This document shows, piece after piece, positions 9,215 through 17,427 of a stretch of 64,000 nucleotides of DNA (the stretch's first letter is position 1; each line of letters begins with the position of its first letter). The notes under the pieces are model-generated. The model had not been told where the DNA came from. It was given only the letters and a program-made list of their open reading frames with translations, and did not search any database. Source of the stretch: Plectrocnemia conspersa (lineage: Eukaryota > Arthropoda > Insecta > Trichoptera > Polycentropodidae). A program made the position numbers and the translations under genes. The stretch covers positions 682,001 through 746,000 of the forward strand of contig VTFK01000086.1 of the NCBI GenBank assembly GCA_009617715.1, written 5' to 3'.

Positions 9215-9264
9215 GTGAGTATTAATAAATATCTTAACTTTTGTAGTGTATAGCAGAGATTTTT

Positions 9265-9699
9265 CGATCGTCAAAGCCCCGCAGACCAGCGGAAGGTCAC
9301 TCCTCTCTGAGGAACCATTCCCGGCACCGCAGCCCGCCGCGTTATCGCGACGACCTTGAGCGCCGCGCCACAGCCCAACGGCTCTTTCTCTCCTCGCCAA
9401 CCGTCAATTTGGTTTGTTATTTCCATGCGATCTTAATCTTCAATTTCAAACAAGTGACAGTTAAAACGCCGTTAGTTTACGTGTCCACCGCCCGCACGCG
9501 AGGGCGCCACCCGCGCCCCCGTCCAAGCCCGTCGCGCAACACCGCTCAGTCTTGCGAAAGCTCTCGAGCCGACGCCAGACTCCAACCCCCGTGTGCGATC
9601 GTCAAAGCCCCGCAGACCAGCGGAAGGTCACTCCTCTCTGAGGAACCATTCCCGGCACCGCAGCCCGCCGCGTTATCGCGACGACCTTGAGCGCCGCGC
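9265..9699 (+). repeat. 104-bp direct repeat in the retrotransposon 5' UTR
   Basis: Positions 9265-9368 and 9596-9699 appear identical, at an offset of 331 bp, and diverge right after a shared GCGCCGCGC. The arrangement resembles one whole and one partial 5' UTR monomer. Known precedent: tandem 5' UTR monomers carry the promoter in some LINEs. Confidence 0.85.
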
Positions 9700-9897
9700 G
9701 CCTACGCCGTCAGCGGCCCCCCCCCCCCCCCCCAAGGAGCGCCACGAAATCCAATCAGACTCCAGTTGGTGTCCACCCGGCTCTGTGCCCACGGGCACCT
9801 TCCAGTGGGAAACCGCATTCTGTCGGAATCCCACTAGACCCACTGTTAAATCGGCGACAAGCCAGCTTCTTATTGGAACACCAGATTATCACCAGTC

Positions 9898-11058
9898 ATG
9901 ACCCGCTCCCCGCGCTCTAGCCCTGGAAAGAGGCTCCCGCAGGCAACCATGGACTCCCCCGACGAAAATCGGCTACCGACAACCACCCCAGATCTGACAT
10001 CCGGGATCTCAGAAATCCTGGAGCTTGTCGGCAAGTCCGGCAACCTCCGAGCTGACCTAAGGGCAGGCATAAAAACTACCTGCAACAGTCTTCTCCAATC
10101 GACCAAACTGCAAGAACAGTACACCCGCCGGCTCGAAACAGAACTGGCTGCACTCAAGCTAGAAAAATCCGAGGCCCTTCTCGCCCAAGAGAGGCGACAC
10201 AACGAGCAGCTCTTCGCTCTCAAAACAAAAACACTTCAGGCCTCCTCTCTAACCCCAACTTGGGCCCCAGTGGCCCCAGCTCGAGGCAACACCGCCTCGA
10301 GACAAGATTTTCCTCCGCTTCCCACCCCATCCCACGTCACTACAATCCGCTCCTCAACGGCAACAGACACCCCACAGCAAGTTATGGACAAGGTAAAGGC
10401 GTCCATCAAACCCGCCACTCTCGGCGTCGCCATCAGCGGCATAAACCCAACCAAAAACGGAGTAAAAATTTTCTGCGCGGACAAATCCAGTGCCACGAAG
10501 ATCACCGCGGCCATAAACAAAACCCCTTCGCTCAGGGCCGACGAGGCCCCCAAGAGGCGCCCCCGGCTCATCCTCGTCGGCGTGTCATCAGACACGCCCG
10601 AAGAGGACGTCCCCCAGGCTCTCCTCGCTCAAAATGAGCTCACACTCCCCAGTGCAACCGACTCCTCTATTACCGTCTGCTTCGCGGGGAAAAACCGCAA
10701 GGCGAACCTCAAAAACCTCATCATCGAGGTCCACCCGAGTCTTTTCGCACCCCTCATCGCTCTCGAGCGTGTAAACGTAAATTTCCAGCGCGTTCGAATC
10801 TTCGAAGCTCGCGTCACCAGCGCCTGTCGAACCTGCCAAGGATACGGCCACTCCACCAAAGCATGCAGAAACAAGCCCGCATGCGAAAAGTGCCACCAAG
10901 GGCACAAATCAGAAGACTGCAAGGCGGAGCACCACAAGGGGTGCTTCAACTGCGCCCTCGTCAGGAAGCCTGCGGACCACAAAGCCGGATCTCCAGACTG
11001 CCCCGTCTACCTCCGCCACCACACCACTGCCACCAGGGCAATCGACTATGGGTATTAA
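9898..11058 (+). CDS. Retrotransposon ORF1, gag-like nucleic-acid-binding protein
   Basis: 386 codons. The N-terminal half is Ser/Thr/Pro-rich with a helical charged stretch around residues 55-110 (a likely coiled coil). The C-terminal end has three zinc knuckles: CRTCQGYGHSTKAC (C-x2-C-x4-H-x4-C), CEKCHQGHKSEDC, and a longer CFNC...H...C. This is the ORF1 arrangement of R1/jockey/I-type elements, where the protein packages the element RNA. The stop overlaps the ORF2 start in the 11-base string ATGGGTATTAA, so ORF2 is probably made by reinitiation or termination coupling. The start ATG at 9898 is the first in frame after the GC-rich 5' UTR. Confidence 0.92.
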   Translation: MTRSPRSSPGKRLPQATMDSPDENRLPTTTPDLTSGISEILELVGKSGNLRADLRAGIKTTCNSLLQSTKLQEQYTRRLETELAALKLEKSEALLAQERRHNEQLFALKTKTLQASSLTPTWAPVAPARGNTASRQDFPPLPTPSHVTTIRSSTATDTPQQVMDKVKASIKPATLGVAISGINPTKNGVKIFCADKSSATKITAAINKTPSLRADEAPKRRPRLILVGVSSDTPEEDVPQALLAQNELTLPSATDSSITVCFAGKNRKANLKNLIIEVHPSLFAPLIALERVNVNFQRVRIFEARVTSACRTCQGYGHSTKACRNKPACEKCHQGHKSEDCKAEHHKGCFNCALVRKPADHKAGSPDCPVYLRHHTTATRAIDYGY

Positions 11059-16325: not shown

Positions 16326-16472
16326 TGACATACATACATACATACATACACATATACATACACATACACATATACATATACATATACATATATATATATA
16401 TATATATATATATATATATATATATATATATATATATATATATATATATATATATATATATATATATATATA
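16325..16472. repeat. (TACA)n then (TA)n compound microsatellite
   Basis: TACA units grade through CATATA units into about 90 bp of pure TA. It sits directly at the edge of the decayed LINE. Confidence 0.95.
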
Positions 16473-16559
16473 AATAAAAATAATAATGAAATTAAAAAAA
16501 AATAATGATTATAATATATTTATAACATATATTTGAAAAAATGTTATATACCCCTGAAG

Positions 16560-16870
16560 CAATTACCCTACAGACGGTTGAAAATGTATTGGATACTTCG
16601 ATTTCGGAGCCGTCGGATCCGGCAGTTCTCGCTAGTGTAGCCAAAGCCGATATATCGGATTTCGGTAGCCAAAGGGTTAAAATAAGGCTAAAAAATAATA
16701 CACGATTTCATTGGTTCATTATCGGTAATTGCCTTATTTTATTAGTTAATAAATGAACTAATGAACCGAGTAGTTACAGCCTTATTTTTTTTTCGCGGAA
16801 AAAACACGTTTCAAGCTTTTCAACTTTTCTGATTGTTGTGAATATCTTGTCGAGTGCTTAGATGAAAAAA
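16560..16870. repeat. Interspersed repeat, partly piggyBac-like MITE end, partly shared with 21620-21830
   Basis: A right end reading GGTAGCCAAAGGGTTAA closes at TTAA 16677-16680; preceded by a CGATATATCGGATTTCG string, it mirrors the left end of the MITE at 26575. No clean left end was found. From 16680 on, the sequence (AATAAGGCTAAAAAATAATA, CGATTTCATTGGTTCA, GTCGAGTGCTTAG) matches 21620-21760 in the TPP2 intron with moderate divergence. No gene is seen in 16871-17427; a slightly GC-richer patch at 17220-17330 is unassigned. Confidence 0.55.
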
Positions 16871-17427
16871 ATTCGCAAAAATCGTTACACGTGATACTAA
16901 AAACGCTGTCGAATTATAGCTGCGTAACGTCATAGCAGAATGCGAAGCAATAAGAGCACCACATACAGTCGTATTTCGTAATTCCTCAACTTGAATGACC
17001 GTTCCATTTGAAAATGTAGAATCTATTCTTAGCTCGCGTGCCGGATTAAAAATTCCTAGCGGACACTAGCTTGCCAACCCCTGAATTAGATGATCACATA
17101 CCAATAGCAACCTATACTAAAAAACATTTACAATTTTTGCTATCACGGCATAAACATAGATTTTATGCATAAATCATCTGTAATTAGCCATATACACGCA
17201 TTTATATAATAGTTGAAGCATCGTCTCAGAGCAGACACAGGTTCAGGCTTCGACCCCAAATCCATTGAAGTCCAGATTTCACGGCGGCATACAGCCTTTC
17301 CATTTCAATCGTCAGATTTTGGTTCAGCCCAGCTGTTTTTTTGGAAAAATCTTATACAATATTTTGAATGTTTGCACAAAACGTCCAGTTAGATCTAGTT
17401 TTTATATTATTATTTAAAACATTTCAG

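What the first reader, a model, noticed from the sequence alone, without database searches (positions are those of the whole stretch)
9215..17427. SCAPER loses its 3' third and TPP2 its 5' fifth at the same transposon block
Both genes are on the plus strand. SCAPER stops after an exon ending NKIIQPVDLLLHRLH with a normal donor, and roughly 400 family residues are absent. TPP2 begins at SHGTHVA, with about 260 residues including the catalytic Asp absent. Everything between is LINE, microsatellite and repeat sequence. Either the assembly is misjoined through repeats, or a large deletion/rearrangement removed the 3' end of one gene and the 5' end of the other. A read-through fusion would be out of frame: SCAPER ends in phase 0 while the TPP2 exon needs one preceding base.
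Basis: partly seen in the sequence, partly recalled or inferred. Interest (0 to 1): 0.75.

Follow-up and report, generated by a model that had tools for sequence, protein, structure and literature searches.

The report
Two insect genes split by misassembly
Two ordinary insect genes look cut in half and glued together here, but their missing halves sit intact at the ends of two other pieces of the same genome assembly, so this is most likely an assembly error rather than biology.

Summary
SCAPER stops after the exon ending at 9214 (phase 0) and TPP2 starts at the exon at 17428, which needs one preceding base; the block between is mostly retrotransposon and AT repeat. But neither gene has lost its other part. 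The window lies in contig C907 (925,474 bp) of a 393-Mb, 959-contig assembly whose closest named relative in our searches is the caddisfly Arctopsyche grandis. The TPP2 start (264 codons plus one base, five exons) lies at the right end of contig C222, 2.7 kb before it stops, and ends in phase 1, as the exon at 17428 needs; together they read as one TPP2 of 1,266 aa without a stop, 70% identical to A. grandis. The SCAPER end (252 aa to its stop, five exons) lies near the left end of contig C295; one ~38-aa exon remains unfound. No second copy of either part was returned. In A. grandis the two genes lie on different contigs of over 30 Mb. Best explanation: a chimeric join somewhere in 9215-17427, made through repeats. 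Deletion is refuted. A real balanced rearrangement cannot be excluded without reads but is unlikely. The overlap that misled the assembler was not identified.

The parts
3255..9214 (+). SCAPER (short spindle 3), 5' part: 12 exons, 1,710 aa, ends in phase 0; the rest lies on contig C295
9215..17427 (.). Block in which the false join is inferred to lie
   Evidence: exact point not found
9265..14977 (+). Non-LTR retrotransposon with open ORFs; ORF2 has endonuclease, reverse transcriptase and RNase H domains; the ORF1 frame (9850-11058) matched no Pfam family. Ends judged by eye
14980..16320 (-). Remnant of another non-LTR element; reverse-transcriptase domain in 15710-16270. Outer ends judged by eye
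16330..16476 (.). AT-rich microsatellite
17428..25811 (+). TPP2, 3' part: 15 exons, 1,001 whole codons and the stop, enters with one base owed; the rest lies at the end of contig C222

Best explanation
Contig C907 is a chimera. In the animal, SCAPER runs from C907-left into the start of C295, and TPP2 runs from the end of C222 into C907-right. The assembler joined a SCAPER intron to a TPP2 intron, most likely within the retrotransposon or microsatellite block, and left C222 and C295 as orphan ends. Both genes are ordinary and whole. Shown: the missing parts exist in the same assembly, near contig ends, in the fitting orientation, and TPP2 is restored in frame. Inferred: that the join is false, and where in the block it lies.
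For: TPP2 start on C222, five exons ending 2.7 kb before the contig's end, phase 1, giving 1,266 aa without a stop at 70% identity to A. grandis over 1,262 columns. SCAPER end on C295, five exons from 20634 of 1,274,681, to a stop codon. By arithmetic on these numbers, a random point lies this close to a fitting contig end with a chance of about 0.7% (C222) and 5% (C295). The block is repeat-rich. In A. grandis the two genes lie on contigs of 33.7 and 32.6 Mb, so they are not neighbours there. No second copy of either part was returned.
Against: No overlap that could have misled the assembler was found: the C222 tail shares no exact 15-mer (plus strand) with the block and no blastn match at 1e-5; the first 20 kb of C295 gave no match to the block at 1e-10, though its first ~300 bases look by eye like the same RT family. 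One ~38-aa SCAPER exon was not found. The element's copy number and identity elsewhere were never obtained. The contig geometry would also fit a reciprocal exchange.
Confidence: 0.92

Rival explanations
1. A real balanced (reciprocal) rearrangement in the sequenced animal, heterozygous or fixed, joined SCAPER 5' to TPP2 3' and, on the other product, TPP2 5' (C222 end) to SCAPER 3' (C295 start); the second join merely failed to assemble.
For: C222 ends and C295 begins just where such a second product would be joined. The block holds an element with open ORFs, a possible site of exchange.
Against: All four gene pieces are open, spliced and conserved, so an old fixed break of both genes is unlikely. 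No contig joining TPP2 5' to SCAPER 3' was returned. False joins at repeats are far commoner a priori (general knowledge).
Confidence: 0.06
2. A functional SCAPER-TPP2 fusion transcript is made across the block.
For: Both genes are on the same strand, with a normal donor at 9214 and a normal acceptor at 17428.
Against: Splicing 9214 to 17428 is out of frame; the fitting partner exons exist elsewhere.
Confidence: 0.01

Closest known systems
Chimeric contigs joined through interspersed repeats in draft assemblies (general knowledge; one search was only a search listing)
   Same: Two genes of different loci abut in introns across a repeat block, with orphan contig ends carrying the complements
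   Different: The shared overlap sequence behind the join was not found here
SCAPER (short spindle 3) and TPP2 of Arctopsyche grandis (P0241, P0001)
   Same: 75% identical over SCAPER residues 1160-1710 of the window model; 70% over 1,262 columns of the joined TPP2
   Different: In A. grandis each gene is whole and they lie on different contigs of 32.6 and 33.7 Mb

Membership tests
Assembly chimera (false join) | The missing complements of both genes exist elsewhere in the same assembly | tested here: met
   (one ~38-aa SCAPER exon not found)
Assembly chimera (false join) | The complements lie near contig ends in the orientation that restores the genes | tested here: met
   C222: 2.7 kb from its end; C295: 20.6 kb from its start
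Assembly chimera (false join) | Sequence shared by the two true loci explains the join | tested here: inconclusive
   No overlap of the C222 tail or of the first 20 kb of C295 with the block; genome-wide search with the element did not complete
Assembly chimera (false join) | No reads span the join | not testable with these tools
   No reads are held
Deletion of SCAPER 3' and TPP2 5' | Missing exons absent from the genome | tested here: not met
   Found on C295 and C222
Reciprocal translocation | TPP2 5' and SCAPER 3' contiguous on the other product | tested here: inconclusive
   They lie on separate contigs, each ending on the relevant side
In-frame gene fusion | Compatible splice phases | tested here: not met
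   Phase 0 against phase 1

The most novel reading that the evidence does not exclude
The sequenced caddisfly carried a real balanced rearrangement, probably heterozygous, that broke SCAPER and TPP2 in one event at a retrotransposon, and the assembly kept one derivative product and the two broken ends of the other.
Probability: 0.06. Interest if true: 0.45.

Novelty: not a real feature. Interest (0 to 1): 0.08.

Why it matters
It matters as a correction. Automatic annotation of this contig would report a truncated SCAPER, a TPP2 lacking its N-terminal part with the catalytic Asp (that residue's role is recalled, not tested), and a false linkage of two loci. C907 should be broken somewhere in 9215-17427 of the window, with C295 and C222 as candidate neighbours.

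Tried and rejected
Deletion: rejected, the missing exons are elsewhere. Missing exons as diverged exons inside the block: not found by tblastn with the A. grandis proteins or with short pieces at loose thresholds (the rows for one beetle piece were cut off by my own output limit and not seen). For the ~38-aa SCAPER exon a profile from 112 of 118 aligned relatives, run on plus-strand frames of C295:1-40000 and window 9001-17600, gave a best E of 0.14 (on C295, about 5801), not convincing and not examined further. Locating the join by overlap failed. Target-site duplication of the element: only an 8-base AT-rich word, at 9225 and 14905, not at the two ends, so nothing follows. Copy number of the element: one identical request, all unanswered. 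Naming the species: the assembly size is near the 396,695,105 bp printed for Plectrocnemia conspersa in PMC8881205 (passages only), but this was not tested and its genome paper is not held. Searches were search listings only; no paper was read beyond the passages.

Full report
What is in the window. SCAPER was modelled at 3255-9214 on the plus strand as 12 exons with GT-AG introns, 1,710 aa without a stop, ending in phase 0. Its SCAPER_N domain scores E 3.2e-45. A match at 333-398 suggests a further 5' coding exon. TPP2 runs from 17428 to its stop at 25809-25811 as 15 exons, 1,001 whole codons, and its first exon needs one base from a preceding exon. It carries the S8 peptidase domain and four TPPII domains and aligns to Drosophila TPP2 (3lxu) in two stretches from residue 272 to the last, 1354, with 1036-1087 of the chain not aligned.

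The block between. About 9265-14977 is a plus-strand non-LTR element with open ORFs. ORF2 has endonuclease, reverse transcriptase and RNase H domains; the ORF1 frame matched no Pfam family. On the minus strand, 15710-16270 holds a reverse-transcriptase domain of another element, and 16330-16476 is an AT microsatellite. The outer ends of both elements were judged by eye. No exon of either gene was found there. The last stretch, 16477-17427, was not assigned.

Whose genome. The best-scoring relatives of both proteins are from the caddisfly Arctopsyche grandis: TPP2 P0001 at 71% and SCAPER/short spindle 3 P0241 at 75% over residues 1160-1710. The window is C907:682001-746000 of an assembly of 392,940,481 bases in 959 contigs; C907 has 925,474 bases. 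The species was not identified.

Where TPP2's start is. A search of that assembly with residues 55-451 of A. grandis TPP2 gave 6 matches at E up to 0.001: 2 on C907 (the exons known) and 4 on C222. Two of the six contain an in-frame stop; each of these runs past an exon's end into intron. C222 has 420,641 bases. Five exons there, with AG and GT at every border except the start codon's own position, end at 417939, so the contig stops 2.7 kb downstream. They hold 793 coding bases, 264 codons and one base. Spliced to the window exon at 17428 they read GMC-S-SHGTHVA, as in A. grandis. The whole protein is 1,266 aa with no stop, 70% identical to A. grandis over 1,262 columns. The DSG motif that I take for the catalytic Asp site (recalled) lies in this part.

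Where SCAPER's end is. A search with the C-terminal 391 residues of A. grandis SCAPER, at E up to 1, gave 8 matches: 3 on C907 (exons already known) and 5 on C295. C295 has 1,274,681 bases. Five exons at 20634-33643 encode 252 aa to a stop; the first enters in phase 2, the others in phase 0. The window ends in phase 0, so one exon is still missing, about residues 1729-1766 of A. grandis. It was not found in C295:1-40000 or in the block; it is short and poorly conserved, or lies in unassembled sequence.

What this means. Apart from that exon, both genes are present in full, and no second copy was returned (the tool scores only its best candidates). They are cut near contig ends in the orientation that puts C907-left before C295 and C222 before C907-right. 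Removal by deletion is refuted. The simplest account is a false join in C907. By arithmetic on contig counts and distances, a random point would lie this close to a fitting contig end about 0.7% of the time for C222 and 5% for C295. Relatives agree that the genes are not neighbours: the contig lengths printed for the two proteins differ in Arctopsyche (33.7 and 32.6 Mb), Plodia (12.5 and 7.0), Ostrinia (19.7 and 12.8), Colias (13.6 and 9.7) and Eumeta (0.2 and 1.4). I compared these by eye, whose lists are capped at 120. Eumeta's contigs are too small to tell, the Colias protein is named only by its similarity, and a cluster may draw on another assembly of the same species.

What is against it. 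The same geometry would follow from a reciprocal exchange whose second junction did not assemble. The overlap that should have misled an assembler was not found: the C222 tail has no exact 15-mer in common with the block (plus strand) and no blastn match to it at 1e-5. The first 20 kb of C295 give no match to the block at 1e-10; further in, 22834-23257 matches the RT remnant at 74-75%, as a dispersed family would. By eye the first ~300 bases of C295 look like that family too. The genome-wide search with the full-length element did not complete. A fixed break of both genes is unlikely because all pieces remain open, spliced and conserved. A heterozygous one in a single animal is possible and needs reads. 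I put the false join at 0.92 and a real rearrangement at 0.06.

Verdict. A correct observation of what is most likely an artefact: useful for mending the assembly and its annotation, of little biological interest.

Noticed in passing
window 8086-8520 (SCAPER exons after the coiled coil); P0241: The window's SCAPER and the Arctopsyche, Plodia, Ostrinia and Eumeta proteins, with the mosquito and fly proteins in the list, lack a C2H2 zinc finger that most beetle and wasp hits have (a simple pattern in the second half: 73 of 121 proteins match). Not clean: some ants, a bee and a firefly also fail, and P0121 and P0122 fail although Pfam lists the finger for them. Possibly a loss in the lineage of caddisflies, moths and flies.
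   Followed up: partly
window 333-398: Probable extra 5' coding exon of SCAPER, matching residues 4-25 of the A. grandis protein at 77%.
   Followed up: no
window 28782-29411 (-), 48649-49353 (+), 56234-57337 (+), 60906-61889 (+): Neighbouring genes by Pfam: MSL2-type RING finger (just above its cut-off), leucine-rich repeats, glycosyl hydrolase family 31, odorant receptor 7tm_6.
   Followed up: no
window 51800-54020 (-): A minus-strand gene that reads by eye like UPF3 of nonsense-mediated decay (recalled name); its frame 52015-52887 matched no Pfam family.
   Followed up: no
window 36445-36713, 54858-55130, 60020-60097; C295:2042-2405: A dispersed repeat family, about 81-92% alike between the window and C295.
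   Followed up: no
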